Source of the DNA: a virus
Strand: one strand, 5' to 3'
Virus record (IMG/VR): IMGVR_UViG_3300036832_001138
Coordinates: 1 to 64,000 of that record
DNA: 64,000 nt
Positions 2,784-16,821 of the stretch are shown one piece after another. Every line of letters starts with the position of its first letter. The stretch's first letter is position 1. Under the pieces are notes generated by a model. That model did not search any database and had not been told where the DNA came from. It was given only the letters and a program-made list of their open reading frames with translations. The position numbers and the translations under genes were made by a program.

Positions 2784-2786
2784 GGT

Positions 2787-2813
2787 GGCGGCGGTGCTTG
2801 TGACACCGCCGCC
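2787..2813 (+). other. GC-rich hairpin after structural gene
   Basis: A perfect 10-bp inverted repeat (GGCGGCGGTG / CACCGCCGCC) with a 7-nt loop sits 3 nt after the upstream stop. No T-tract follows, so it looks like an RNA stability or processing hairpin rather than an intrinsic terminator. Confidence 0.5.
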
Positions 2814-2819
2814 GGAGAT

Positions 2820-2914
2820 GCGCCCGGCAGTCACCGTTTGGAGTTCACATCATTCCTGGCCGGGCGCGGCGGTCGCACGAACGCGATGGAGTTCAGAAGA
2901 ATAATGGCGACCGC
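2820..2914. repeat. Orphan TIGR-like A/B hairpin pair
   Basis: One A hairpin (edge GCGCCCGGC/GCCGGGCGC) abuts one B hairpin (edge GGCGGTCGC/GCGACCGC). Each has the exact geometry of the large arrays at 53.7-56.1 kb: A, 9 variable nt, TGGAGTTCA, 9 variable nt, T. Variable segments on the + strand are GTCACCGTT/CATCATTCC (A) and CGAACGCGA/GAAGAATAA (B). It fills the gap between two late genes and could encode two dual-spacer guides. Which strand is functional is not known. Confidence 0.85.
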
Positions 2915-2942
2915 AACGAGAGTGTAACCGAAAAAAGGGCCA

Positions 2943-4103
2943 ATGGCGAGAACACCCACACGAGTACCCGCATTTCCGACAACGCCGCCGGGCGCGGGCG
3001 TGCCGACGCGCGTACCGGGGCCGTCGCTTCCTCCCGTGGGTACGCGCTCGCCCACGCGCGTGCCCGCTGCGCCGCAGACCGCGCCGGGCAACGGCTTTCC
3101 CAATGCGGTGCGTATTCCGCAAACGTCGCCGGTCGGCCCGACCTACCCGGTGCACAGCCCGCCCGCGCCTACCGTCGGCTCGCGCTTCCCGGCGAATTCT
3201 CCGCCTCTGCCCATCGTGCCCGCGCGCTATCCCAACAGCGCGCGGCTGACGGCGGAGGCGGTGATCAGGGGGGCGAGCTTTCCCAATCGAAGCAGTCCGG
3301 GCATGGCGTTGCCGACGCCAACCGGGCAATTCCCCGATCACCCGACGGCGCAACTCCCGGCCCCGCCCGCGCAATTCCCCGACCGATTCGATCCGGGTAT
3401 GACGCTGCCGACGCCAGTCTCGCACTTCCGTCACTACAACAAGCCGGGTGAGCCGGGCTCGGGCGGGTTTGATCCCGCACCTGCGCCAAATCGGCGCTTC
3501 CCGACGCGGCATATCGATCCGCTCACGCGCATCCCGCGGTGGCGGCAACGGCTGCGTATCGCCTCATTCAAGGGGATTGAATTCTACGTCGAGCAACAAG
3601 GGCGCACGTCCGGCACGCGTACCGTCTTGCATCAATATCCGAAGCGCTCTGTGCCCTATGCCGAATCCATGGGACGCGAGGCGTTGCACTACGCGGTCAC
3701 CGGCTATCTGATCCAATCGCCGAACTGGCCGACGGGCGCGTCGTATTACGAGATGCTCTCGGATTATTCCGATCAGCGCGACAGCCTCGAAGCGGCGTTG
3801 ATGGACCCGGTGCCGGGCGAATTGCGTGATCCGCACACGCCGTATCTCGGCGTTGGTTACGCGCCGCTTCTGTTCATGTGTGAGAAGTACACGATCGTCG
3901 AGCAACGCGAGAAGGGCGGTTTTTGCTCGATCGAAATGAGCTTCGTCGAGGCTGGCGTCGCTGGCATGTCGATCCAAATGCAAGACACCGCTGGCGTCGT
4001 CGCCAACGCCGCGAACAACGCGAGCACTGCCGTAGCCGCGCAGGCTAATGCGCAACTCGGTGCCGTCAATCAACCCGGCGCTGCGCTCGCGTTTGAAGAA
4101 TAG
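2943..4103 (+). CDS. DNA circulation protein N-terminal family / Mu gp43-like tail protein
   Basis: 386 residues. Residues 1-190 are a Pro-rich low-complexity tract made of short degenerate repeats (TRVPAFPTTPP, TRVPGPSLPP and similar). From about residue 195 the DNA_circ_N signature appears: WRQRLRIASFKGIEFYVE, then RTVLHQYPKRSVPYAESMG and ALHYAVTGYLI, closing with IEMSFVEAG. In Mu-like phages this protein sits between tape measure and hub and takes part in tail assembly. The repeat-rich N-terminal extension is unusual for the family and may be a spacer or surface-exposed arm. Confidence 0.8.
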   Translation: MARTPTRVPAFPTTPPGAGVPTRVPGPSLPPVGTRSPTRVPAAPQTAPGNGFPNAVRIPQTSPVGPTYPVHSPPAPTVGSRFPANSPPLPIVPARYPNSARLTAEAVIRGASFPNRSSPGMALPTPTGQFPDHPTAQLPAPPAQFPDRFDPGMTLPTPVSHFRHYNKPGEPGSGGFDPAPAPNRRFPTRHIDPLTRIPRWRQRLRIASFKGIEFYVEQQGRTSGTRTVLHQYPKRSVPYAESMGREALHYAVTGYLIQSPNWPTGASYYEMLSDYSDQRDSLEAALMDPVPGELRDPHTPYLGVGYAPLLFMCEKYTIVEQREKGGFCSIEMSFVEAGVAGMSIQMQDTAGVVANAANNASTAVAAQANAQLGAVNQPGAALAFEE

Positions 4104-4158
4104 TTCTTCGTCGTTTCCCCGTTCCACATCGCCGTCAACGTGAAGGGAGGGCATATCA

Positions 4159-4539
4159 ATGCCTGGAAAATGCAATAGCTATGTTCTCGACAACGGCTTG
4201 GTCGCGTTGAAGGCGGCTGCAACGCACATCTATATTTGCAGTCAGGAGCCCGTGGATTACACGACGGCAACGACCACCTACGCGCTTGGCAACAAAAACT
4301 TCGGCGCGGGCGCGGTGCTCACCGGCCCGGTCGATCGCACGCCGAATGGTCGCAAGGTCACGACCAACGCCGTTACCGATGGCAACGTGACCGGCAGCGG
4401 CAATGCCGCACGATGGGCGATTGTCGATGCTGCGAACTCGCGGCTCTTGGTCGACAACGATCTCGCCGCATCGCAGCCCGTGACCGCCGGAAACGTATTC
4501 AGCTTGCCCGGATTTGATTTCGGCATCCCTGGTTCGTAA
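4159..4539 (+). CDS. Small virion-associated protein, unknown
   Basis: 126 residues with a good ribosome binding site (GAAGGGAGGG, then ATG). It has no signal peptide or membrane segment, is rich in Ala, Thr, Asn and Val, and looks all-beta (VLTGPVDRTPNGRKV, RLLVDNDLAASQPVTAGNVF). It leads the block of three paralogous structural genes, so a tail or decoration role is likely. Function is inferred only from position. Confidence 0.6.
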   Translation: MPGKCNSYVLDNGLVALKAAATHIYICSQEPVDYTTATTTYALGNKNFGAGAVLTGPVDRTPNGRKVTTNAVTDGNVTGSGNAARWAIVDAANSRLLVDNDLAASQPVTAGNVFSLPGFDFGIPGS

Positions 4540-4561
4540 ACGCGACTAAGGGAGCGCGGCG

Positions 4562-5431
4562 ATGGTCGCCAAGCTCATCAGGCACAAGTTTCAATCGGCC
4601 GTCGCTGACGGTACCGATGCGACGCTCGTGCGACCGTCTGTCTGGAACGGTGATGCGCATGATTTCAAGCTCGGCGGGCGCACCGTCGTGGTGTTGACGG
4701 ATACGATTGTCAACGCCGACGAATGGAGCCTGATCAAATACAATCGTCCTGGTCAAAATATAGCCGTTTCGCTCGCCGCGCCTGACGCTAACAATTTTCA
4801 GGCGGGATGGACGACATTCCTGCGCAACATCAACTCAGGCATCGCCACCATCACGACTCCGGCCTTGATCCAATTTGGCATGGGATCAATCAGTTCGCTC
4901 AATCTTCGTCAGGGAGAAGATTTGATCCTGACATCGGATGGCACGAATTACGACGTGCTGTGGTCATCGGGCTCGCTATTTGCGCGGGCGGGACAAATAC
5001 CGGGGACGGCGACAAACGACAACGCGGCGGCGGGCAATGTCGGCGAGTTTCTGTTCTCCGTTGTCCCAAGCGGTTCAGGGCCGGGTCTTGTTAGCAGCAC
5101 TGCGGTGGCCGTCGCTGGTGTCAATCTCACGCCGGGGGATTGGGACGTGCAGGCCATGATTGGGTTTGTTGGCGGCGCTGCGACGCAGGTGGCCTATGCG
5201 ATTGGTTCGCTATCAACGGCGCAGGGTGGGATAACGGGCGGCTATGGTTCGGTGTGGCAGGCGTATTACAACGCCGGGCCATTCAGTTCTATCGGCAGCA
5301 TCATGCTGCCGATATCGTCAGTACGATATACCCCCACTAGCACGACAACCGTTTGGTTGAACGCGCAGGTGGGCTTTACTCCTGGCTCAGTCAGCGCCTT
5401 CGGCACCATCCGCGCGCGCAGGGTGCGCTGA
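4562..5431 (+). CDS. Structural protein, paralog 1 of 3
   Basis: 289 residues opening with LIRHKFQSAVADGTDATLVRPSVWNGDAHDF. It shares with the next two genes the blocks EWSLIKYNR, DANNFQAGW, LRQGEDLILTSDGTNYD, GQIPGT.NDNAA.GNVGE and a C-terminal RARRVR. The last block and the beta-rich C-terminal half suggest a trimeric fibre or tip protein. Its stop overlaps the ATG of paralog 2 (TGATG). Function is unknown; the tandem triplication within the tail module suggests a host-contact or decoration role. Confidence 0.65.
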   Translation: MVAKLIRHKFQSAVADGTDATLVRPSVWNGDAHDFKLGGRTVVVLTDTIVNADEWSLIKYNRPGQNIAVSLAAPDANNFQAGWTTFLRNINSGIATITTPALIQFGMGSISSLNLRQGEDLILTSDGTNYDVLWSSGSLFARAGQIPGTATNDNAAAGNVGEFLFSVVPSGSGPGLVSSTAVAVAGVNLTPGDWDVQAMIGFVGGAATQVAYAIGSLSTAQGGITGGYGSVWQAYYNAGPFSSIGSIMLPISSVRYTPTSTTTVWLNAQVGFTPGSVSAFGTIRARRVR

Positions 5432-6288
5432 TGGCAAAACTGTTCAAACATAAGTTTCAGTTGGCCGTCGCGGACGGTGCTGATGCGACACTTGTGCGTC
5501 CATCGACCTGGAACGGCGATGCACATGACTTCAAGCTTGGCGGGCGCACGGTAACGGCGGCGACGGACACGATTGTCACCACCGACGAATGGAGCCTGAT
5601 CAAATACAATCGCGCTACACCCATATCAGTCAGCATGGGGCCGATAGATGCCAACAATTTTCAGGCAGGTTGGGTGACGTTTGTACGCAATCTCGGTGCG
5701 GGAGTTCTGCAAATCAGCGGTACAGGCGGCGTCAACAATGGTTTTGGAAACGCCTCCCCCCTAAGACTTGAGCAAGGTGAAGATGCGATTATCACTTCGG
5801 ATGGCGCGAATTTTGATGCGCTTTGTTCGTCTGGCTCGCTGTGGACGCGCGCGGGCCAGATACCGGGGACGCTAACCAACGACAACGCGGCGGCAGGGAA
5901 TGTCGGCGAGTTTTTGATAGCGACGAGCGGCAGTGGTGCGCTGGTAACCGATACTCCGTTTGCGCTGATAAGTATCACGCTAACAGCAGGAGATTGGGAC
6001 ATTGAGGGGACCGCGACATTTTCCGGCAGTGGGGCAACCCCGGTGAACTATTTGATAACCGCAGTTAACACCGTAGCAAACCAAGTGCATCAGGGACTCG
6101 GTTCGCATTGGCAGACGTTTTGGGGCCAGACGCCATTCAACGTTGTAGGCAACGTGGTTTTGCCGATCAGCAAATGGCGGCTCAGTATTGCGTCTGGCAC
6201 GCAGCCCGTTTATGTGAACGTACAGGCGGGCTTTACTCCGGGCGCAATCAATGCCGTAGGCACTATCCGCGCGCGCAGGGCACGCTGA
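5431..6288 (+). CDS. Structural protein, paralog 2 of 3
   Basis: 285 residues, from the ATG overlapping the previous stop (MAKLFKHKFQLAVADGADAT). It is very similar to paralog 1 over the first 180 residues and diverges in the C-terminal half (about residues 180-270) before ending in the same TIRARRAR tail. Conserved N-terminal attachment and variable C-terminal regions are typical of receptor-binding or decoration proteins. It is coupled to paralog 3 by TGATG. Confidence 0.65.
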   Translation: MAKLFKHKFQLAVADGADATLVRPSTWNGDAHDFKLGGRTVTAATDTIVTTDEWSLIKYNRATPISVSMGPIDANNFQAGWVTFVRNLGAGVLQISGTGGVNNGFGNASPLRLEQGEDAIITSDGANFDALCSSGSLWTRAGQIPGTLTNDNAAAGNVGEFLIATSGSGALVTDTPFALISITLTAGDWDIEGTATFSGSGATPVNYLITAVNTVANQVHQGLGSHWQTFWGQTPFNVVGNVVLPISKWRLSIASGTQPVYVNVQAGFTPGAINAVGTIRARRAR

Positions 6289-7169
6289 TGGTAGCAAAGA
6301 TTTTCAAGCACAAGTTTCAGTCAGCGATTGCGGATGGCGCTGATGCGACGCTCGTGCGGCCGCAGGCGAATTGGAATCTCGACGATCATGATTGGCGATT
6401 TGGCAGCCGCACGGTCACGGCGGCGACCGATGCTATCGTCAATGCCGATGAAATGAGCCTGATCAAATACAACAGGTCATCGGCAATCGCTGTTTCCATC
6501 GCGTCGCCGGATGCCAATAACTTTGTACCCGGATGGCTCACGTTCGTGCGCAACATCGGTGTGGGCTTGGTCACGATCACGGCCGCTGGCACAGCAGTGT
6601 TTAATCGTGGATTGGATTCATCAAGCTTTCTCTACCTTCGTCAAGGCGAGGATGCATTCATCATATCTGACGGCACGAATTACGATGCAATCGTTCGGTC
6701 CGGCTCGCTGTTCAATCGACGCGGCCAGATTCCAGGGACGACAGGAAACGACAACGCGGCGACGGGGAATGTCGGCAACACTCTTAGCGCTTCCAACGGG
6801 CCGTTCGGACTCACGTCAAATGTAATTACCAGCACTAATGCATTCTCTTTAGGCCCCGGCGATTGGGATTGTGATGCAACGATGTCATTCAGCACGGTAT
6901 CGGGCAATGAGCCAAACACCTACGTCGATTATATTACTGGTTTTTTCAATCTCGATACTTATGGCCAAGGATATGGACAGCAGCAATTTGCGGTGCCCTT
7001 GTTTCACAGCCAGCCTTTTCTCTTTATTAACAGCCTTGGGTTCGTGCTACCGACCGCACGAGTTTTGGTGCCAGTTGGCGCGACTTCCGGCGTGTTTATG
7101 GCCGCGCAGGCTGGCTTTGCTGGCCCCTTACAATTCACTTGGTACGCGTCATATCGGCGGGTTCGCTGA
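6288..7169 (+). CDS. Structural protein, paralog 3 of 3
   Basis: 293 residues starting MVAKIFKHKFQSAIADGADAT. It keeps the shared blocks (EMSLIKYNR, DANNFVPGW, LRQGEDAFIISDGTNYD, GQIPGTTGNDNAATGNVG) but has the most divergent C-terminal half, with Asp/Tyr/Gln-rich stretches, ending YRRVR. The stop overlaps the ATG of the LGSPSF-repeat gene. Read with its neighbours this is recent tandem duplication plus divergence. Confidence 0.65.
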   Translation: MVAKIFKHKFQSAIADGADATLVRPQANWNLDDHDWRFGSRTVTAATDAIVNADEMSLIKYNRSSAIAVSIASPDANNFVPGWLTFVRNIGVGLVTITAAGTAVFNRGLDSSSFLYLRQGEDAFIISDGTNYDAIVRSGSLFNRRGQIPGTTGNDNAATGNVGNTLSASNGPFGLTSNVITSTNAFSLGPGDWDCDATMSFSTVSGNEPNTYVDYITGFFNLDTYGQGYGQQQFAVPLFHSQPFLFINSLGFVLPTARVLVPVGATSGVFMAAQAGFAGPLQFTWYASYRRVR

Positions 7170-8674
7170 TGTCCGGCCCGACTGCATTCCAACCTAATGC
7201 CTTTCAGGCGAATGCGTTTCAGACCGCCGTCCCGCTGACGGTTAATGCCTATTCGCTCGGCGCGCTGCAAATCGGCATCCCATCGCTGACGGTCAAGCGC
7301 GTTCTGTCCGCCAACGCCTACTCGCTCGGCTCGCCCGCCTTCGCCGCGCCGCCGCTCAAAGCGGTTGTTATCTTCACGGCCCCCGTGGCGTACTCGCTCG
7401 GTTCGCCGAGCTTCGCCAAACCGGCTCTATTTAGCTGGACGCGGATCGTCGCGGGCGATTACTCGCTCGGCTCGCCGAGCTTTGCGACGCCGCCGCTCAC
7501 GCGCATTGTCGTCTTCGGCAAGCCCGCGGCGTATTCGCTCGGCTCGCCCGCATTTGCCACACCGGCTCTGAAAATTATCGGCTTCGCATTTCATGCGAAC
7601 CCGTATTCGCTCGGCTCGCCGTCATTCGCATCGCCGTTTGTCCGCTTCACGCAAAAGTTCACGGCGCGATCGCTCACGCTCGGATCGCCGACATTTGCCA
7701 CGCCGCAACTGACGCAAACGCATCGGTTCTTTACCAACACGATGGCGCTCGGCTCGCCGAGCTTCGACCGACCAAGCGTCAGGATGAACTATCGCCTTGT
7801 ACCGGCGGCGTTCGATGTCGGCAGTCTCGACATTGCGTCGACCCCGCCCGTGCTTGAGATCACCACGCTATTCAAAGCGAATGCCTATTCGCTCGGTAGC
7901 CCGAGCTTCGGCTTCCCGCGGTTGCAAACGCAAGCCGTCACGCCGCCATGGCCGCCGAGCTATTTGACTCAAGTTGAGTCAGCGACCGATCTGCTCGTTG
8001 GCTTCGTCAACGCGGTGTTGCGCAGCATACCCGACACCTCGACTGACGTTGCGCAAACCGCGTTGCAGCTTGGGGCACAACTTCGTGCCAATGCGACCAA
8101 CATCATTCGCGGCAATACGCTTGGCACGCTACTCAATAACTTCCTGCTCGCGGCTGATGCTGCGGGCGCAACCTATGGCGGTATCGAGGAAGCGCGCAAA
8201 TATCTGATGAGCTTTAGCGGAAGCCCGCAAGTGTTTACGCAAATCGTCATGCGCTCGGCGCTCGTGATGACGCTTGGCCTCGAAAGCAAAATCATTTCGC
8301 GCATGACATTCTCGACGCAAGCGCAAGCGCAAACAATGGTCATGGCCGTGCAGACGATGTTTGATGACGCCAAGGCGATCGGGATCGATACCATCGATGC
8401 GCTGGTTTATGAAAACCTGATTGCGTTGGCCGGTGCAATCATGAACCACCTCGCGACGACGGCATTGCAGCTTCCGCGCTACGTGGAATATCGCAGCGGC
8501 CTACCGATGCCGAGCCTTTATCTCGCCAATCGCGTCTACGGCGACGCCAGCCGGTTCGAAGAAATCGAGCGCGAGAACGGCGTGATTAATCCCGCATTCT
8601 GTCCGCGCACATTGCGCGTCTTGTCGGATGCGGAAATCGTTCCGCTACCGGGAGGGCCCTACCGGGCAAGCTGA
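7169..8674 (+). CDS. LGSPSF-repeat structural protein
   Basis: 502 residues. The first 250 consist of about ten copies of a roughly 28-residue repeat centred on AYSLGSPSFATPPL with a hydrophobic/aromatic spacer. Residues 260-500 are non-repetitive and helical (SATDLLVGFVNAVLRSIPDT, TALQLGAQLRANATN), ending in MPSLYLANRVYGDASRF. This combination of a beta-repeat shaft and a globular C-terminal domain fits an elongated tail or baseplate protein. The start is the ATG overlapping the previous stop; translation upstream of it is unlikely. Exact role is unknown. Confidence 0.65.
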   Translation: MSGPTAFQPNAFQANAFQTAVPLTVNAYSLGALQIGIPSLTVKRVLSANAYSLGSPAFAAPPLKAVVIFTAPVAYSLGSPSFAKPALFSWTRIVAGDYSLGSPSFATPPLTRIVVFGKPAAYSLGSPAFATPALKIIGFAFHANPYSLGSPSFASPFVRFTQKFTARSLTLGSPTFATPQLTQTHRFFTNTMALGSPSFDRPSVRMNYRLVPAAFDVGSLDIASTPPVLEITTLFKANAYSLGSPSFGFPRLQTQAVTPPWPPSYLTQVESATDLLVGFVNAVLRSIPDTSTDVAQTALQLGAQLRANATNIIRGNTLGTLLNNFLLAADAAGATYGGIEEARKYLMSFSGSPQVFTQIVMRSALVMTLGLESKIISRMTFSTQAQAQTMVMAVQTMFDDAKAIGIDTIDALVYENLIALAGAIMNHLATTALQLPRYVEYRSGLPMPSLYLANRVYGDASRFEEIERENGVINPAFCPRTLRVLSDAEIVPLPGGPYRAS

Positions 8675-8677
8675 TCG

Positions 8678-9205
8678 ATGGCCGATGTTCGAATAATCAG
8701 TAAGTTCGATTGGCGCGAGACAATCGCCGATTGGCAGCTATTGCAAAATGGGCTGCTCGACGAACGCGAGGAACTTGCGAATTATGTCAAGGTCGCGCTG
8801 ATGACCAATCGGCTTTCCGAGCCGACGGAAATCAGGCCAGACCCGGATTCTGACGATCGCAACGGATGGTGGGGCGATTATCAGGCGCAAGAGATTCACC
8901 GCGGCTGGCCGATCGGTTGCAAAAATTGGCTGCTCACCCGCGCCAAGATCAACGACGCGCCATCCATGGAAGGTGCAACCGTCGTGCGTGCGGAAATGTA
9001 TACGCGCGAAGCGTTGCAACCGCTAATCGACATGAGACTGTGCACCGCGATCGATGTGAAGGCCGCACGCGTCGGCGTAGATCGCATCGATGTTGGCGTT
9101 GTCGTTTATCGCGGCAACATGCCGGAGGTCGCGCTCCTATTCCAAGACCTTTGGAACAAGATGCGCGTCGAACCGGTGCTCTCGCCGTATGGAGGTTCAG
9201 TATAA
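8678..9205 (+). CDS. Mu gp46-like baseplate protein
   Basis: 175 residues with the GP46 family hallmark DDRNGWWGDY, followed by the CKNWLLTRAKI block that corresponds to the usual GSRLWLLxR motif. Gp46 is a wedge-associated baseplate component of Mu-like contractile tails. It is placed directly before the gp47-like gene with no intergenic gap, as in Mu. Confidence 0.85.
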   Translation: MADVRIISKFDWRETIADWQLLQNGLLDEREELANYVKVALMTNRLSEPTEIRPDPDSDDRNGWWGDYQAQEIHRGWPIGCKNWLLTRAKINDAPSMEGATVVRAEMYTREALQPLIDMRLCTAIDVKAARVGVDRIDVGVVVYRGNMPEVALLFQDLWNKMRVEPVLSPYGGSV

Positions 9206-10309
9206 ATGCCGTGGGTCACGCCAACGTTGCAGCAATGCCGCGAGATCGTGCGCGACGATATCACCGCGTCTTTGCAGGGCGCGGCCGTGGTCGGCAACAC
9301 GGTGCTGCGCGTTATGTCCGATGCGATGGCGGGGATCGGCGCGCTCGTGCTGCGATACGAGGATTGGCAGGCGCGGCAATTGATGGTCGACCAAGCCGAG
9401 AAGGAATGGCTCGATCGGCACGGGAACATATGGCTCGTGAACGCCGACGGCACGACCGGCCGCAAGGGCGCGACCACGGCATCCGGTACGGTAACCTTCA
9501 CGGGCGTTGCAGGCGTGACCGTTGCCGCGGGCACCGAGCTTGTGTCACCTGACGGGCAGGCGTTTTACGATACGCTGGAATTCATCACGCTCGGCACGGC
9601 ACCGGTCGAGGTTGCCGTTCGCGCGACGACCGCCGGGGCGGCGGGCAACATACCCGCGGGCACCGCGCTGGCGCTGACCGTTCCGGAATCCGGCGTCGAT
9701 AGTGCGGTCATCGTCGTCGATCTGCGCGGCGGTGAGGAAGTCGAGAGCGATGACGAACTCCGCGCGCGCGTGCTCGCGCGTATCCGCCAGCCACCGATGG
9801 GCGGCTGCGCTTACGATTACGAGCATTGGGCGATGAGCATTCCGAGCGTGACGCGTGCATGGTGCGCGCCGCGCGAGATGGGAATGGGCACCGTGACGGT
9901 GCGATTCATGTGCGACGCGTTGCGGCCGGAAACCAGCGGCATCCCGACGCAAGACGATATCAATATCGTGCGCAACTATCTCGACACGGTGCGCCCGGTC
10001 GCGGTGCGAGATTTCTTCGTTGAAGCGCCCGTGCCCGAGCCGATCAATTTCAATCTCGCGCTCAAACAGGATTCTCTCGCGCTGCGCGGGCAAGTGCAAG
10101 CGTCAGTCGCGGCGATGATCAGCGAGAAGGCCGCGCCCGCGCACCAAGTCGACGGCGAGCTTGTGGCGGGCACGACGATTCTCGCATCGTGGGTTGCGGA
10201 GGCGATCAACCGCTGCACGAATGATTTCACGCTCGATATGCAAGATCATCCCATGCCGCACAACGGGGCAATCGGGGTACTCGGTGCGATCAGCTATCCG
10301 ATTCCGTAG
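9206..10309 (+). CDS. Mu gp47 / baseplate J-like wedge protein
   Basis: 367 residues with the normal length and order of the baseplate J family: N-terminal helix-rich part (VMSDAMAGIGALVLRYEDW), the beta domain A..ASGTVTFTGVAGVTVAAGTEL, then GAAGNIPAGTALAL, and the signature ELRARVLARIRQPPMGGCAYDY followed by VTRAWCAPREMGMGTVTV. The protein forms the wedge ring of contractile-tail baseplates. Its stop is followed within 10 nt by an orphan TIGR-like hairpin. Confidence 0.9.
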   Translation: MPWVTPTLQQCREIVRDDITASLQGAAVVGNTVLRVMSDAMAGIGALVLRYEDWQARQLMVDQAEKEWLDRHGNIWLVNADGTTGRKGATTASGTVTFTGVAGVTVAAGTELVSPDGQAFYDTLEFITLGTAPVEVAVRATTAGAAGNIPAGTALALTVPESGVDSAVIVVDLRGGEEVESDDELRARVLARIRQPPMGGCAYDYEHWAMSIPSVTRAWCAPREMGMGTVTVRFMCDALRPETSGIPTQDDINIVRNYLDTVRPVAVRDFFVEAPVPEPINFNLALKQDSLALRGQVQASVAAMISEKAAPAHQVDGELVAGTTILASWVAEAINRCTNDFTLDMQDHPMPHNGAIGVLGAISYPIP

Positions 10310-10319
10310 AGAGAAGGGC

Positions 10320-10369
10320 GAGCCCCGGCAGTCACGCTCTGGAGTTCATGAATTCGATGGCCGGGGCTC
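10320..10369. repeat. Orphan TIGR-like hairpin unit
   Basis: A 10-bp edge stem GAGCCCCGGC/GCCGGGGCTC encloses A, GTCACGCTC, TGGAGTTCA, TGAATTCGA, TG, the same 9-9-9 arrangement as the arrays at 53.7-56.1 kb. The stem differs from the standard A stem but is fully self-complementary. The first five variable bases (GTCAC) equal those of the orphan A unit at 2820. Confidence 0.8.
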
Positions 10370-10420
10370 TAAGTCGCTTGGGAGCGACCTGACGACAAGT
10401 TTAGAAAAGATGGAGAGAGA

Positions 10421-11452
10421 ATGCCACCGCCTCCTGGCCCGCCGGTCGAAGATCGCCACGTCCGCCGCGGGCAGGAAGAATATTCGCACGCCATAAGCGC
10501 GTTGCTGCCGCAAGGCATCGCGTGGCCGCGCTGGCCTGACAGCGTTTTGATGCAAACGGTCTATGGCCTCGCGGGCATCATGGGTTATGCCGACGGCCGG
10601 ATCGCCGATCTGCTTGAGCGCGAAAGCGATCCGCGCATCACAACCGAAATGCTCGATTGGTGGGAGCGGGCGTGGGGCTTGCCTGATCCCTGTTACACCG
10701 GTCCGTCGACCATCGGCGAGCGGCAAAAAGCGCTGATGATGCGCATGACGTTAATGGGCGGGCAGTCGCGAGAATTCTTTATCGCGATGGCCGCCTACAT
10801 CGGCTACACGATCGCGATCAGCGAGTACAATCCCTTCATTGTTGGCATCGCGCCGCGCTACCAAGGGCACTATTATCAGGGCAATTATGACGTTGTTGCC
10901 AACTCGCCCGATCTCAGGGCGATCACGCCGAGCAAGGATCAGTTTTGGAGCGCGGTGACGCCGGATGCCGGATACAACACGCCGCCCGGTTACACCAATG
11001 CGCCGACGCCATCCGCATTGACGGTTGCGCTGCCGCCGCTGACTGCCGGAGCGGCAATCTCTTTCGGCGATCGCTTGTGGTTCGACGGCACCAATTGGAA
11101 AATTGCCCCGGTCGGGCAAAGGTTCTATTCCGACATCGCGGGTTTTGACGAATCGCTGCGCTCGCGCTGCGGAGATAACCGCGATTACAAGGCCGACGGT
11201 TCGCTCGGCGAATGGCCCGCACAGATCGGTCATCCGGCGATGCGGTTTGCTTGGACCGTGCACGTCTACCGCGCGCGGCTGACGTGGTTTCGCGCGAGCA
11301 AGGGCCAAGCCGGTGTCGATCCGCATTTGCGCATCGGCAAGGCCGAGGACCTTGAGTGCATCATCCGCCGATGGCGGCCCGGTCATACCGAGGTGCTGTT
11401 CGATTACAGCGGCACCGCTGCGCCGGGCGATCCCATGGCTGGTACGCCGTGA
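10421..11452 (+). CDS. Mu gp48 / YmfQ-like (DUF2313) tail protein
   Basis: 343 residues. The N-terminal half matches the gp48/DUF2313 pattern: EEYSHAISALLPQGIAWPRW, DGRIADLLERESDPRITTEMLDWWERAWGLP, then a RQKALMMRMTLMGGQSREFF block. The family completes the Mu-type baseplate and follows gp47. The C-terminal 180 residues are longer than in the classical members and contain a Trp-rich segment (RLWFDGTNWKIAPVGQRFY). The ribosome binding site is GGAGAG; a short hairpin (GTCGCT/AGCGAC) sits in its leader. Confidence 0.8.
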   Translation: MPPPPGPPVEDRHVRRGQEEYSHAISALLPQGIAWPRWPDSVLMQTVYGLAGIMGYADGRIADLLERESDPRITTEMLDWWERAWGLPDPCYTGPSTIGERQKALMMRMTLMGGQSREFFIAMAAYIGYTIAISEYNPFIVGIAPRYQGHYYQGNYDVVANSPDLRAITPSKDQFWSAVTPDAGYNTPPGYTNAPTPSALTVALPPLTAGAAISFGDRLWFDGTNWKIAPVGQRFYSDIAGFDESLRSRCGDNRDYKADGSLGEWPAQIGHPAMRFAWTVHVYRARLTWFRASKGQAGVDPHLRIGKAEDLECIIRRWRPGHTEVLFDYSGTAAPGDPMAGTP

Positions 11453-11512
11453 TCCTCCCGCGCCGTTGAGACGGCGCGCATCAACCAAAGCGTTCAAAGA
11501 GGGAAATGCGCG

Positions 11513-12847
11513 ATGAAATATTCGCAGCCGTTCGGCACGCCCGATCCACCGCTCGGAACCTACCCGAGATTCGTTAACGGGAATCCCGTGACGGGCACCG
11601 AGGGCTCGATCCCTCCGGCGACCGCGTTCGACGAAGACCAAATCGAGATCATCACCGTTATCCAAAACGCTGGTCTAACGCCGGATCACGGCGACCTGAC
11701 TCAGCTATGGCAAGCGTTGATGGCGCTGTTTGCGCAGAAGTACATCACCACGCCAATCACCAAGACGATACACGGCGCGGGCGCGGATTTTCCTGATTTG
11801 ATTGCGGCGTTTAATTGGGTCGCGCAATACATCATCACGCCGACGGGTAGCGTCACGTTTCTTTGCGCGTCGGGGACATGGAATTACACGCAAACCGTCG
11901 AGGTTAATCACCCGAACGCCGATCGCATTGTCGTCACTGGCCCTGCGCTTACCGGAGCTTCGCCAGCGCAGAATCAACTCTCTGTCACGTGGCCGATCAC
12001 CGGCACGTCGCGGCAGACCGACGGCACCAATCAGCACAATCAGTTGAAGGGCATTTACGCGTGCGAGCTTAGCTTTCTTGGCGGCGTGAGCGGGTTTCGC
12101 GTCTACCGCGGCGGCGTGACCATTCGCTATCTCTTGATCAGCGGGACGCAAACGGTCGCGCAACCGCACGCGGGCGATCCCGGCGGCTGCGGCATCTGTG
12201 CATTTGCCACCGTGGTGCTCGACGGCACGGCGGTATGGGGCTTCGGCAATCATGGTTATTACAGTCAAGGCGGCGCATTTTTATCCTACACATCGCTTTC
12301 GATCATTGCGTCGTTTTGCAATTCATGTGGCTTTTGGACCTTCGGCGGGTTGATCTCGTTTCTGTCCAATCAAAACGTTATCAGCACCTCACACGGCTCT
12401 TGCGCGTTTGCCTGTTTCGGCACCGAGGTCTATTCCGGTATTGTCGATGCGCGCGGGATCGCGACACCGAAAACCGTTGCGGGCGGCGGTGCGTCTAACG
12501 TTGGCGCGGTCACGGTCGAGCAGGGCACGCAATTCATGATGGGGGCGGGAAGCCTTGTGCGCTACTGCAACAACCAGGGCTGCACCGTCGCCGACTGCTC
12601 GACGCTGCAACTCAGCGGCAGCACGGTGATGGATTGCAGCGTTTGGCAGATTTGGATGAACAACGGCGTATGTTGGGCGGAGGGCTCAAATATTCAGCAA
12701 ACCGCGGGCACGGTCTATCCCAACGGCGGCGTTGCGGTTCTGCAAAACGGTGCACAGCTTTCGTTGCTCGGTGCTGTTGTCGGCGGCAGCGTCTTCCCGA
12801 CGCCCAACACGTACAACATGGCGAACAATTCTTTCGTGCGCATGTAA
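11513..12847 (+). CDS. Tail fibre with beta-helix-like body
   Basis: 444 residues. The N-terminus (YSQPFGTPDPPLGTYPRFVNG) resembles Mu-type fibre attachment domains. Residues 95-440 are a Gly/Ser/Val-rich succession of short beta strands (RIVVTGPALTG, GVTIRYLLISG, VVLDGTAVWGF, LQLSGSTVMDC) typical of right-handed parallel beta-helix receptor-binding fibres. Cysteines are unusually frequent in the helix. The gene follows the gp48-like protein, the expected fibre position. Confidence 0.7.
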   Translation: MKYSQPFGTPDPPLGTYPRFVNGNPVTGTEGSIPPATAFDEDQIEIITVIQNAGLTPDHGDLTQLWQALMALFAQKYITTPITKTIHGAGADFPDLIAAFNWVAQYIITPTGSVTFLCASGTWNYTQTVEVNHPNADRIVVTGPALTGASPAQNQLSVTWPITGTSRQTDGTNQHNQLKGIYACELSFLGGVSGFRVYRGGVTIRYLLISGTQTVAQPHAGDPGGCGICAFATVVLDGTAVWGFGNHGYYSQGGAFLSYTSLSIIASFCNSCGFWTFGGLISFLSNQNVISTSHGSCAFACFGTEVYSGIVDARGIATPKTVAGGGASNVGAVTVEQGTQFMMGAGSLVRYCNNQGCTVADCSTLQLSGSTVMDCSVWQIWMNNGVCWAEGSNIQQTAGTVYPNGGVAVLQNGAQLSLLGAVVGGSVFPTPNTYNMANNSFVRM

Positions 12848-12856
12848 GGAGGCACT

Positions 12857-13087
12857 ATGACCGATGTTGGTGTTGGCAGCGGCTATAAGTTTCCTCTCAC
12901 GCCCTTGACGTGCAACTACTGCGGCGCGGTTTGGGATCGAGTCAATCCGGTGGTTCACACCGGAACGGCGAATCAATTCTCCGGCCACACCGATGCCGAA
13001 TGGGAGCAGTGGCGGATCGATCAGGGCATTCCTGACGGCCAACCTTACGCGCGCTGGACGCCGGTCGCGCCCCCGCCCGGACCATGA
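12857..13087 (+). CDS. Small protein with CxxC motif, unknown
   Basis: 76 residues with ribosome binding site AAGGAGG and a single TCNYCGAVW motif. Acidic/aromatic middle (HTDAEWEQWRIDQGIPDG) and a Pro-rich end. It sits between fibre genes and overlaps the next gene by 4 nt, so a fibre chaperone or accessory role is possible but unproven. Confidence 0.55.
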   Translation: MTDVGVGSGYKFPLTPLTCNYCGAVWDRVNPVVHTGTANQFSGHTDAEWEQWRIDQGIPDGQPYARWTPVAPPPGP

Positions 13088-13977
13088 CGCTTCGTCCGCG
13101 CATCCCGCTCGATCTCGGCATTCGGCGACCGCCGATCGTCAGTCCATTCTTTACCTATCCCTATCAAAATCCGGTGTATCCGCCGGACATGCCGATTCCG
13201 GAGATGGAGCAAATCGCGCGCGACGCGGCAATGGCGCGCGCGCAGTCGCCGGGCGAGCGCGTTTGTTTGATCGATGAGGCGACGGCGCTCGAAAACCCGA
13301 CACATACGCACCCTTACGATGAGTGCATGAATTATCGGCACGATCACGTCGTGGCGGATAGCGATCCCTGGACCTACTGGCAACTGCTCGATCAGGTTGT
13401 CTCGAAGTTTATGGCGATCCCGCCGCCGCCGCCGCCGCCGCCGGTTGGCTGGAATTCTCGCGCCCGCGTCAACGAAAGCGGCATTTCGATCATGGATGGG
13501 ACAAGCCCCGGCTGGCAGGGCTTCACGTGGGCGACCATGATCGGCGCGTCGCGGATTAAGCTCGGGCCCGGCAACCAAAGCCGCGTCACGATCCAAGGGC
13601 TTGCGCTGATCGGTCCGGTCTACCTTTGCCCGATCGCCGCACCGGCAAAACCGTTCATGGCGAACATCATTTATCCGCTAACCTTCAATGGCGGGCAGGG
13701 TTTAGTCGTGCCGCAACCGCCTGATTATGTGGCAACATCTGATCCGCTGCCGCACGGACTCGACCTTCCTAACGGTGTCATGATTTATTCGTATGTTCCG
13801 GACGTAGCTCCGGGGCAACCGACCGGGTATATCGGCCACCGCAACACCGAACAGGATTGGTACTCGCGATGGGCGTATGGCAATTGGTCCGGGCATTATG
13901 ATCTGTTCACGCCGACGGCGTGGGTTGCTGCCCCCTTTGGCTCGATTGGGGTGTTAGAGTTCGACGCGAACTACTGA
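13084..13977 (+). CDS. Putative fibre-associated protein with poly-Pro hinge
   Basis: 297 residues overlapping the previous gene (ATGA). Residues 1-110 are helical, then a run of eight prolines (IPPPPPPPPVG) acts as a hinge to a beta-rich C-terminal domain with RVNESGISIMDGT, VTIQGLALIGPVYLC and a DLFTPTAWVAAPFGSIGVLEF end. The layout looks like a receptor-binding or tip protein. No family is recognised. Confidence 0.55.
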   Translation: MTLRPRIPLDLGIRRPPIVSPFFTYPYQNPVYPPDMPIPEMEQIARDAAMARAQSPGERVCLIDEATALENPTHTHPYDECMNYRHDHVVADSDPWTYWQLLDQVVSKFMAIPPPPPPPPVGWNSRARVNESGISIMDGTSPGWQGFTWATMIGASRIKLGPGNQSRVTIQGLALIGPVYLCPIAAPAKPFMANIIYPLTFNGGQGLVVPQPPDYVATSDPLPHGLDLPNGVMIYSYVPDVAPGQPTGYIGHRNTEQDWYSRWAYGNWSGHYDLFTPTAWVAAPFGSIGVLEFDANY

Positions 13978-14075
13978 GTCGAATCACAGTGGAAAAACGT
14001 AAAGGACCAATTGCCAAACGCGGACAATTGGCCCTAGCTTGATTGCTCTCACCTCAAACAGAAGGAGTCGTCATT

Positions 14076-14708
14076 ATGGTCGGAAGACTCGCCTACATCG
14101 TGTTTCTGGATTCCGGTGGTCCGGTCGATCCGGGCTTCGGCGTTCCCGGTTGGCCCGCGCATCCTATCGCACCGGGCGGGCCGCCTCCCGGCATCTGGCC
14201 CGGTCCCGGCTACCCGGCACATCCGATCGCGCCCGGTGGTTCTCCGCCCGGCATTTGGGGCGGTGCGCCAGCATGGCCCGCGCACCCGATCGCGCCCGGT
14301 GGTCGGCCTCCGGGTTTTTGGGGCGGGTCACCCGCATGGCCGAGCCATCCCATCGCGCCCGGTGGTTCGCCTCCGGGTATTTGGGGCGGCGTTCCGCCGA
14401 ACTACATCGACATCGGGTTACCGGGCCAGCCGCCCGGCATTTGGGGCGGTGGCAATCAACCGTTCCCGACGCCGCCGATCTACATTCCGATCCCGCCCGG
14501 CGAGCAGCCGCCCGAAGGCGGCAATGGGCTCTTGCCTAGTCATCCGATTGTGATTCCACCGTCGGAAGGCGTTCCCGAAGATAGCCAAAAATACTTGGTT
14601 CACGTTTACGTCGCGGGGGTTGGTGGAGTGTGGTTCTTGATCCAACCGCCGCCCATGCCGACGCATCCGTGGGTGCCGCCCGCTCCACCGGCAGGGCCGA
14701 AGGCGTAA
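14076..14708 (+). CDS. HPIAPGG-repeat protein
   Basis: About 210 residues; the start was chosen at the ATG after AGAAGGAGTC rather than the upstream in-frame codon. Residues 25-135 hold at least five copies of a 21-residue Pro/Gly/Trp repeat: HPIAPGG(S/P/R)PPG(I/F)WGG. The C-terminus has a short beta segment (YLVHVYVAGVGGVWFLI) and a Pro-rich end. It lies at the end of the fibre block. A hairpin CCAATTG/CAATTGG occupies the preceding intergenic space. Probably a structural spacer or a secretion-independent surface protein; function unknown. Confidence 0.6.
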   Translation: MVGRLAYIVFLDSGGPVDPGFGVPGWPAHPIAPGGPPPGIWPGPGYPAHPIAPGGSPPGIWGGAPAWPAHPIAPGGRPPGFWGGSPAWPSHPIAPGGSPPGIWGGVPPNYIDIGLPGQPPGIWGGGNQPFPTPPIYIPIPPGEQPPEGGNGLLPSHPIVIPPSEGVPEDSQKYLVHVYVAGVGGVWFLIQPPPMPTHPWVPPAPPAGPKA

Positions 14709-14750
14709 CGCGTGACATCTTTCGGTGACGGGCAACCCCCATCACCGTGA

Positions 14751-14814
14751 GCCCTCGACGTTAAGAGCGTCCGAACGTTCTGGAGAGCGCCCGAACGTTT
14801 CTGGCGTCGAGGGC
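14751..14814 (+). other. Long inverted repeat (processing-type hairpin)
   Basis: Perfect 10-bp arms GCCCTCGACG/CGTCGAGGGC enclose 44 nt containing two imperfect copies of CCGAACGTT(C/T). No T-tract follows. A second hairpin (GGCCCCG/CGGGGCC, 14836-14862) lies just downstream and shares the inner phrase GACG-T-AGAGCG. Confidence 0.5.
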
Positions 14815-14864
14815 AACCACGATGAGCGAAAAAGCGGCCCCGACGCTTAGAGCGCCGGGGCCTG

Positions 14865-14914
14865 TGATCCGGGCATCAGGTTATTGGAGTTCATAGGTCG
14901 CGTGGCCGGGATCA
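14865..14914. repeat. Orphan TIGR-like hairpin unit
   Basis: Edge arms TGATCCGGGC/GCCGGGATCA (one mismatch in the 5' arm) enclose A, TCAGGTTAT, TGGAGTTCA, TAGGTCGCG, TG. The spacing is identical to all array units. It lies in the 300-nt gap before the endolysin, after two ordinary hairpins and before the terminator at 14971. Confidence 0.75.
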
Positions 14915-14970
14915 CGCGATCAAGTCTTACAGGGACTTTGCCTAAAGGGTAGAGGCAGAATGAAATGGCG

Positions 14971-15001
14971 GCGGGCTGCTTCGGCGGCCCGCTTTGTTTT
15001 T
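14971..15001 (+). terminator. Intrinsic terminator before the endolysin
   Basis: GCGGGCTGC-TTCG-GCGGCCCGC stem with a UUCG tetraloop followed by TTTGTTTTT. It would end or attenuate the tail-gene transcript just upstream of the lysis genes. Confidence 0.85.
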
Positions 15002-15012
15002 GGGAGCACGCC

Positions 15013-16821
15013 ATGCGCAACAATCCGATCGCGATCTCGTCGGGCCACGGCAAGTTTATTCGCGGTGCGAGCGGATATCTCGACGAAGTTGACGAAGCGC
15101 GTCGCGTCGTTGCGCGCGTTGCTGACATGCTCACCGAACGCGGCGTCACCGTGCGCGGCCCGTTCAATGACGATACGAGCACAACGCAAAACGAAAATCT
15201 CAATCGCATCGTTGACTGGCATAATTCGCAAGAGCGCGTGCTCGACGTGTCGGTGCATTTCAACGCGAATGAAACCACGTCGTCGCCGATGGGCACCGAA
15301 GTGCTCTACGTCACGCAACAGATGCTCGCGGCCGAAGTCTCGACGGCGATCGCGGATGCGGGCGATTTCAAGGATCGCGGACCAAAAAAACGGACCGATC
15401 TCTACGTGCTCAATAACACCGACATGCCTTGTATCCTGCTCGAAGTGTGCTTCGTTGATAGCTCGGCGGACGCCGAACTATACGAAGACAACTTCGATGC
15501 GATTTGCGACGCGATCGCACAATCGATCTGCGATGTGACGGGCGAAGACGCCGGGCCGCAGCCGCCGGATCGTCCGGATCGCCCGGAGCGGCCGCCGCAA
15601 CCGGAAGTGCCAACCGAGCGCCCCGAGCTAAGCAAGGGCGATGAGGGCCCGTGGGTCGAGAGCGTACAGCGAACACTCGGCCTGCCGCTCGACGGCGACT
15701 TCGGCAATACGACACAAGCGGGCGTGCAAGGCTATCAGCGCGCGGTCGGGCTTTCCGCCGATGGCAAGGTCGGCGACACGACATGGAAATATCTCGATGA
15801 GCTTGATCGCCGTATGGCGACCGGCGACGCCGGGATCAGCGATGAACTCGCGGCATCAATCGATGAGTTGGTCGCGGACTCGGGCATCATAGAATATTTG
15901 TGGCCCGATCGCGGGCAAGCGCCGATGGGTTATTACAACGGCATTGCCAAGACCTACGCGTTAGCGATCAAGCGCTATGCCAACGGCGACGGCGCGACCG
16001 CGATCATGGCGCAAGCCGAAACCGGCAGTGCCAGCCATGATGCGCTGACGTGGTATCACGATGAATTCGAAGCGCGCGGGATGCGCAACGATGCGAATAG
16101 CGTCGACACGCTGCGCCATCTGTTCGTGATGCTCACCGGGCTCGGGGTGCGCGAAAGCACCGGCAACCATTGGACCGGGCGCGACATGACCGCCGACAAT
16201 GTGGAATCCGACACGTGCGAAGCTGGCGCGTGGCAATCGAGTTGGAATCTCAGCAATTGCTCGTCGGAAATCAGCAAGCTATTCGATGAGTTCAAGATCG
16301 ATCCGAACGCGTTCCGCCCGAGCTACAGCGAAGGCGTGGTGCCCTATCCGGATGATCTCGACAACTACGGCGGCGGCGACGGTGCGACGTATCAATTCCT
16401 CGCGAAATATTCCCCGGCGTTTGCTGCATTGATGACCGGTGTCGGCATGCGGTTGCTCGGCGGCAGCGAGGGGCATTGGGGGCCGATTCGCCGCCGAGAG
16501 GTGACGATCGAGCCGCGCATCGATGAACTTCTCACCGAAGTCGATTTGCTGGTCGAGAATGAGGACATCGAGCCGCCGGGCCCCCGTCCTGATCCGCGGC
16601 CGCCGCAACCCGAGCCCGGCGCGGCTTACGTCGCCGTCAATGTCTCGGCGTTGGGTCGCGTGATCGTCAATATCGAGGAACCAACTAACGAACCATCGGA
16701 CGAAGTGCCGGAGGTGACGATCAGCGTGCGCAGTAAAGGTGCGGTCGCAGTGAGCGTGAACCACGGCACGCCCGACGAGATCGCCGATGCGTTGCGCGTT
16801 GGTAAGGTGAGACACGTGTGA
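15013..16821 (+). CDS. N-acetylmuramoyl-L-alanine amidase endolysin
   Basis: About 602 residues; the ATG 7 nt after TGGGAG was chosen. Residues 5-165 match Amidase_3: ISSGHGKFIRGASGYLDE (zinc His), SVHFNAN and the catalytic-end Glu in PCILLEVCFVDSS. After a Pro-rich linker, residues 200-260 are a PG_binding_1 domain (GDEGPWVESVQRTLGLPLDGDFG..TQAGVQGYQ). Residues 275-510 form an extra helical domain of unknown type with GVRESTGNHWTGRDM, possibly a second lytic module. The last 70 residues are beta-rich. It cleaves the peptide-glycan amide bond for lysis. Its stop overlaps the next gene. Confidence 0.88.
   Translation: MRNNPIAISSGHGKFIRGASGYLDEVDEARRVVARVADMLTERGVTVRGPFNDDTSTTQNENLNRIVDWHNSQERVLDVSVHFNANETTSSPMGTEVLYVTQQMLAAEVSTAIADAGDFKDRGPKKRTDLYVLNNTDMPCILLEVCFVDSSADAELYEDNFDAICDAIAQSICDVTGEDAGPQPPDRPDRPERPPQPEVPTERPELSKGDEGPWVESVQRTLGLPLDGDFGNTTQAGVQGYQRAVGLSADGKVGDTTWKYLDELDRRMATGDAGISDELAASIDELVADSGIIEYLWPDRGQAPMGYYNGIAKTYALAIKRYANGDGATAIMAQAETGSASHDALTWYHDEFEARGMRNDANSVDTLRHLFVMLTGLGVRESTGNHWTGRDMTADNVESDTCEAGAWQSSWNLSNCSSEISKLFDEFKIDPNAFRPSYSEGVVPYPDDLDNYGGGDGATYQFLAKYSPAFAALMTGVGMRLLGGSEGHWGPIRRREVTIEPRIDELLTEVDLLVENEDIEPPGPRPDPRPPQPEPGAAYVAVNVSALGRVIVNIEEPTNEPSDEVPEVTISVRSKGAVAVSVNHGTPDEIADALRVGKVRHV

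What the first reader, a model, noticed from the sequence alone, without database searches (positions are those of the whole stretch)
2820..14914. Orphan dual-spacer units scattered between late structural genes
Four more hairpins with the same 10-9-10 loop occur outside the arrays: an A/B pair at 2820-2914 and singles at 10320-10369 and 14865-14914, all in intergenic gaps. The last two have different but self-complementary (or nearly so) stems, so the loop format is kept while the stem changes. On the late (+) transcript they read TGGAGTTCA, the complement of what the array promoter would give. They could be solo guides, decoys, targets for array RNAs through loop-loop pairing, or seeds of array growth.
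Basis: partly seen in the sequence, partly recalled or inferred. Interest (0 to 1): 0.8.

Follow-up and report, generated by a model that had tools for sequence, protein, structure and literature searches.

The report
Scattered single guide-RNA genes in phages
This phage carries, besides its array of dual-spacer guide RNAs, single copies of the same guide hairpin in the gaps between its virion genes on the opposite strand, and related phages do the same, which suggests that guides of the recently described TIGR-Tas system can also be small independent genes whose target-matching parts are swapped in place.

Summary
Units lie at 2820-2914 (pair), 10320-10369 and 14864-14915; a further pair lies at 67392-67488 of the 73-kb record, outside the window. 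Read on the minus strand each is stem-CCA-9 nt-TGAACTCCA-9 nt-TG-stem. This is the TIGR stem-loop guide unit (box C CCA, box D UG), and the window encodes a nuclease-less TasA (52733-53647) and two arrays. The orphans are best read as dispersed single-guide genes. They fold as RNA with strong covariation. Isolated units often carry a short 5' hairpin where arrays have a second guide. The three late-region groups are antisense to the virion genes; two were compared with relatives, whose gaps are empty. Antisense units in seven phage records have sigma70-like promoter sequence upstream; sense units in early operons do not. At orthologous sites flanks differ by 15%, stems by 1% and spacers by 57%, so guides are replaced in place. 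No guide matches its own genome, other units or relatives beyond chance, which argues against decoy targets and loop-loop pairing; targets remain unknown. TIGR-Tas is known; in the one primary paper held I found no mention of solo units, their 5' hairpin, antisense placement or in-place spacer exchange. Nothing here shows expression.

The parts
2820..2867 (-). orphan unit A of the pair: CCA + spacer GGAATGATG + loop TGAACTCCA + spacer AACGGTGAC + TG, 9-bp CGGC-type stem
2869..2914 (-). orphan unit B of the pair (5' partner in the RNA): spacers TTATTCTTC and TCGCGTTCG, 8-bp GGTCGC-type stem
2921..2949 (-). candidate promoter of the pair, TCGCCA-17-TACACT
   Evidence: p=0.031, 85-nt window; not found with another window and background nor by the strict scan
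2784..2815 (-). strong hairpin directly 3' of the pair, no T run
   Evidence: read from the sequence
10320..10369 (-). solo orphan unit: spacers TCGAATTCA and GAGCGTGAC, 10-bp stem GAGCCCCGGC
   Evidence: RNA fold with its 5' hairpin z=-4.8
10371..10390 (-). 5' hairpin of the solo unit, AGGTCGCT(CCCA)AGCGACTT, like the unit-B stem without a guide
10398..10427 (-). candidate promoter GTGGCA-18-TAAACT
   Evidence: p=0.046 and 0.043; not found by the strict scan
14864..14915 (-). solo orphan unit: spacers CGCGACCTA and ATAACCTGA, 11-position stem with one C/C mismatch
   Evidence: folds poorly on its own
14836..14862 (-). intrinsic terminator directly 3' of the solo unit, stem then GCTTTTTCGC
14922..14938 (-). 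weak 5' hairpin AAGTC(CCTGTAA)GACTT
   Evidence: p=0.04; p=0.075
52733..53647 (-). TasA, Nop-domain protein without a nuclease domain
53678..54215 (-). TIGR stem-loop array, 10 units in B-A pairs
54931..56122 (-). TIGR stem-loop array, 22 units in B-A pairs
56130..56159 (-). candidate array promoter TTGACA-18-TATATG
   Evidence: p=0.003
54227..54898 (-). gene X, conserved protein between the arrays, function unknown

Best explanation
The orphan units are functional, independently placed genes for single (or paired) tigRNA guides of the phage's own TasA system. Each would be transcribed from the minus strand, from its own promoter where it sits antisense in a late-gene gap, or within the operon where it is in sense. 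The stem-loop, often with a 5' hairpin, would be released and bound by a TasA dimer through boxes C and D, and the two 9-nt spacers would pair with the two strands of a target in another replicon, which TasA can bind but has no domain to cut. Units appear as small cassettes and their spacers are exchanged while stems stay fixed. Shown by sequence: anatomy, covariation, TasA homology, 5' hairpin, antisense placement, promoter enrichment, empty sites in relatives, spacer turnover. Inferred: expression, binding, targeting and its purpose.
For: Box C/D layout CCA-9-TG...CCA-9-TG on one strand only, as published for TIGR units (PMC12045711). TasA: profile match to TasR 9MTY; model's best folds TasR, TasH, IS621, Nop5. 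Stem covariation in 26 solo units: 96% of cells paired, score 0.568 vs 0.171 shuffled, 0/500. 5' hairpin on 43 isolated units, combined p about 1e-15, none on the 3' side or before grouped units. Seven phage records with antisense units between virion or late genes, none found in sense there. Promoter-like sequence upstream of 13 antisense groups p=6e-8; opposite strand p=0.09; sense units p=0.34. Terminator after the 14864 unit. Orthologous sites: flank 14.6%, stem 1.0%, spacer 57% divergence. All six orphans of this phage carry the array's consensus loop.
Against: No expression or binding data. No target found: own genome, relatives and one viral-collection scan at chance. The 14864 unit has a stem mismatch and a poor fold and only a weak upstream match. 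Promoter scores use an E. coli-like matrix, and the antisense set was defined after seeing the data. Orphan positions are not conserved in syntenic relatives. All orphan groups of this phage share strand with its array, so orientation may reflect a genome-wide strand bias.
Confidence: 0.7

Rival explanations
1. RNA decoys: solo units mimic tigRNAs of a competing phage's Tas protein and occupy it, as solitary CRISPR repeats (Racrs) do to Cas proteins.
For: Racrs are solitary repeat units in phage genomes (PMC10651486). Several records with solo units have no TasA match, for example a 68-kb record with three antisense solo units.
Against: This phage has its own TasA and its orphans carry its own loop. 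Stems are kept and spacers turn over, which a decoy does not need. Records without TasA may be fragments.
Confidence: 0.15
2. Non-functional relics or hitchhikers: units scattered by recombination from arrays and decaying in gaps.
For: Two positions are empty in syntenic relatives; the 14864 stem has a mismatch.
Against: Covariation in stems, perfect boxes and consensus loops, 5' hairpin, antisense-only placement in late regions with promoter-like sequence, stem divergence 1% against 15% in flanks.
Confidence: 0.1
3. Elements of the late mRNA: on the plus strand the hairpins act as RNA stabilisers, processing sites or attenuators between virion genes.
For: They sit in intergenic gaps of the late operon and the plus strand also folds.
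Against: Box motifs and intrinsic terminator are on the minus strand; in other phages the same units lie in sense in early operons; hypervariable spacers are not expected of a stabiliser.
Confidence: 0.05

Closest known systems
TIGR-TasA with stem-loop arrays (Faure et al. 2025, PMC12045711)
   Same: Nop-domain TasA without nuclease, hairpin units with two spacers flanked by box C (CCA) and box D (UG), short loop element between spacers
   Different: Units dispersed as single or paired genes far from TasA, antisense to virion genes with own promoter-like sequence; solo units with a 5' hairpin; spacers replaced in place. In the sections and searches read I found no mention of these; their dual-repeat array search covered 5 kb on either side of the protein gene
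Racrs, solitary CRISPR repeat units in phages (PMC10651486)
   Same: Single guide-like repeat units encoded alone in phage genomes
   Different: Racrs mimic the repeat of a host system and inhibit it; these have two spacers each and match the phage's own arrays
Dispersed box C/D snoRNA genes
   Same: Single guide RNAs with box C/D motifs bound by a Nop-domain protein, scattered over the genome (comparison made in PMC12045711)
   Different: No K-turn, L7Ae or fibrillarin partner was looked for or noticed here; guides of the known TIGR relatives pair with DNA, not RNA

Membership tests
TIGR-Tas, stem-loop type | Tas protein with Nop domain | tested here: met
   profile match to TasR 9MTY E=0.0012; model's top folds TasR and TasH
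[quoted passage not shown]
   CCA-9-TGAACTCCA-9-TG in arrays and orphans
TIGR-Tas, stem-loop type | palindromic stems in place of edge repeats | tested here: met
   stem covariation
TIGR-Tas, stem-loop type | units in arrays next to the tas gene | tested here: not met
   true of the two arrays; the orphan units lie kilobases away. The system as a whole is a member; the orphans are filed as a variant of it
TIGR-Tas, stem-loop type | RNA expressed, processed and bound by Tas | not testable with these tools
   needs RNA-seq and pull-down
TIGR-Tas, stem-loop type | spacers direct binding to a tandem DNA target | tested here: inconclusive
   no target beyond chance
Racr-like RNA inhibitors | mimics a foreign system, no matching effector in the same phage | tested here: not met
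   this phage has TasA and arrays with the same loop; open for records without a TasA match

The most novel reading that the evidence does not exclude
Phages run a two-mode guide repertoire: arrays transcribed with TasA, and mobile single-guide cassettes dropped into late-gene gaps in antisense with their own promoters, in which whole guides are exchanged by recombination through conserved stems and loops; some phages keep only solo guides and rely on a Tas protein supplied by another element.
Probability: 0.3. Interest if true: 0.88.

Novelty: new variant of a known kind. Interest (0 to 1): 0.74.

Why it matters
The discoverers of TIGR-Tas state that how its arrays arise, expand and get their spacers is an open question. 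Orthologous units in closely related phages whose spacers were replaced while stems and flanks stayed fixed, and units that share spacers with other units of the same genome, make that question directly testable. Solo units also offer a minimal natural guide gene.

Tried and rejected
Self-targeting in either geometry: best matches equal permuted spacers. Targets in 18 related records, tested on a random 110 of 286 units: chance. Viral-collection scan for the target of a guide conserved in two phages: 10 hits, about what I estimate by chance. Orphans as targets or partners of array guides: chance. Rfam: no match. TasA in plasmids: none; in reference genomes only two weak partial matches; in cultured phages one distant match. 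Alternative guide strand: rejected, the CC of box C is kept in the expected place only on the minus strand. Completeness of the G044 record from an end repeat: not confirmed. Hits of the first viral pattern scan without a stem (most of L010-L025) were chance matches. Low-scoring scan hits inside genes or with broken stems were set aside by eye. A search for syntenic relatives of the endolysin next to the 14864 unit found none, so that gap could not be compared.

Full report
Anatomy. On the minus strand every unit reads stem, CCA, 9 nt, TGAACTCCA, 9 nt, TG, stem. The loop nonamer occurs 27 times in the window against 0.29 expected. Outside the arrays it occurs in a pair at 2820-2914 and singles at 10320-10369 and 14864-14915; the 73-kb record has another pair at 67392-67488.

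System. The gene at 52733-53647 is a TasA. It weakly matches the IS110 Nop-like family, its profile best matches the TasR chain 9MTY among solved structures, and its AlphaFold2 model (pLDDT 84) is closest to TasR and TasH, then IS110 recombinases and Nop5. No nuclease domain was seen. The units fit the published stem-loop TIGR format. For dual-repeat arrays that paper looked within 5 kb of the protein gene; in the sections and searches read I found no mention of solo units.

Orphans are RNA-like. In 26 solo units from many phages (chosen from 36, ungapped), 8 of 11 stem pairs show changes on both sides, 96% of cells pair, and the covariation score is 0.568 against 0.171 in shuffles. Units were found by requiring a stem, so the share paired is partly built in; the number of double changes is the more telling measure. 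The unit at 10320 with its 5' hairpin folds with z=-4.8; the 14864 unit, which has a C/C mismatch, does not fold well alone.

Standard format. In this clade arrays are made of B-A pairs (GGTCGC stem, then CGGC stem). Of 43 non-redundant isolated units, 18 have a significant hairpin within 8 nt upstream (2.1 expected; combined p about 1e-15); the downstream side (p=0.5) and units that start a group (p=0.2) do not. In several cases the hairpin is the B stem closed by a plain loop, as at 10371-10390 here.

Placement. Among the records read in full, antisense groups between virion or late genes occur in this phage (baseplate and endolysin region), G002 (tape measure), G022, G024 (head closure, tail sheath), G042 (tail fibre), G043 (major head protein, terminase) and G044, and no unit was found in sense inside such clusters; sense units sit in early-type operons. 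Flanking genes of G022, G044 and two G042 units had no informative PHROG assignment, so 'late' there rests on gene order. By genome 7 of 7 agree (p=0.016), with the caveat that in the phages with a TasA the array lies on that same strand.

Expression signals. The array starts after TTGACA-18-TATATG. Upstream of 13 antisense groups a sigma70-like matrix scores above random genome positions (combined p=6e-8), not on the opposite strand of the same stretches (p=0.09) nor upstream of 21 sense units (p=0.34). For this phage alone the three values were 0.57, 0.046, 0.18 with a 70-nt window and 0.031, 0.043, 0.41 with 85 nt and another background, so single promoters are tentative. The strict consensus scan finds no promoter at any of these places, the array included. 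The 14864 unit is followed by an intrinsic terminator on its own strand.

Origin and turnover. A relative with the same virion genes (L128) has about 18 nt where this phage has the pair, and four relatives have about 12 nt or less where it has the 10320 unit, so these look like inserted (or lost) cassettes of about 100-140 nt. The 14864 gap could not be compared. Across 14 comparisons of orthologous units, flanks differ by 14.6%, stem and boxes by 1.0%, loops by 6.3%, spacers by 57%. These comparisons come from few loci and are not independent: twelve of the 14 are one paired site in four phages, and stem conservation is partly favoured by the scan's own stem requirement. There, flanks 95% identical can carry a replaced guide while flanks 81% identical keep it, and the two units of the pair behave independently. 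A solo unit (L153/L203) also shows replacement. Units in G002 and G048 share spacers with other units of the same genome, one combining the A spacer of one unit with the B spacer of another, which suggests recombination through loop and stems.

Function. No unit tested matches its own genome, relatives, the orphans or the array beyond permuted spacers. So self-regulation, decoy targets and loop-loop pairing are unsupported, and targets lie elsewhere or are unknown. The most likely reading is a dispersed guide gene for TasA, acting on other replicons by binding. A Racr-like decoy role is the main rival, chiefly for records in which no TasA was found.

Limits. No expression data; gene calls in relatives are crude; most records are fragments; the antisense set was defined after inspection; the structure scanner was adjusted during the work, with shuffled controls run for one version. 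The notebook's remark that G044 is a complete genome is withdrawn.

Noticed in passing
54227-54898: Gene X, 223 aa, between the arrays next to TasA; homologs (22-57% identity) at the matching place in 11 other TIGR-TasA phage records. No Pfam or PHROG function; model (pLDDT 76) has no close solved fold. Candidate accessory protein.
   Followed up: partly
record 67392-67488 (outside the window, locus L009): A further B-A pair, in sense between early-type minus-strand genes.
   Followed up: yes
14970-14993: Plus-strand terminator-like hairpin inside the listed start of the endolysin ORF 14965-16821; the true start is probably near 15013.
   Followed up: no
G042 (L209-L212): 68-kb phage record with three antisense solo units and no TasA match.
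   Followed up: partly
4562-7169: Three consecutive ORFs match the same single tail-fibre-like region of relatives, as if triplicated here.
   Followed up: no
14187-14389: 63-nt tandem repeats within ORF 14076-14708.
   Followed up: no
L043: Rhizobium phage RHph_X2_25 carries a distant TasA-like protein (26% identity), annotated hypothetical.
   Followed up: partly
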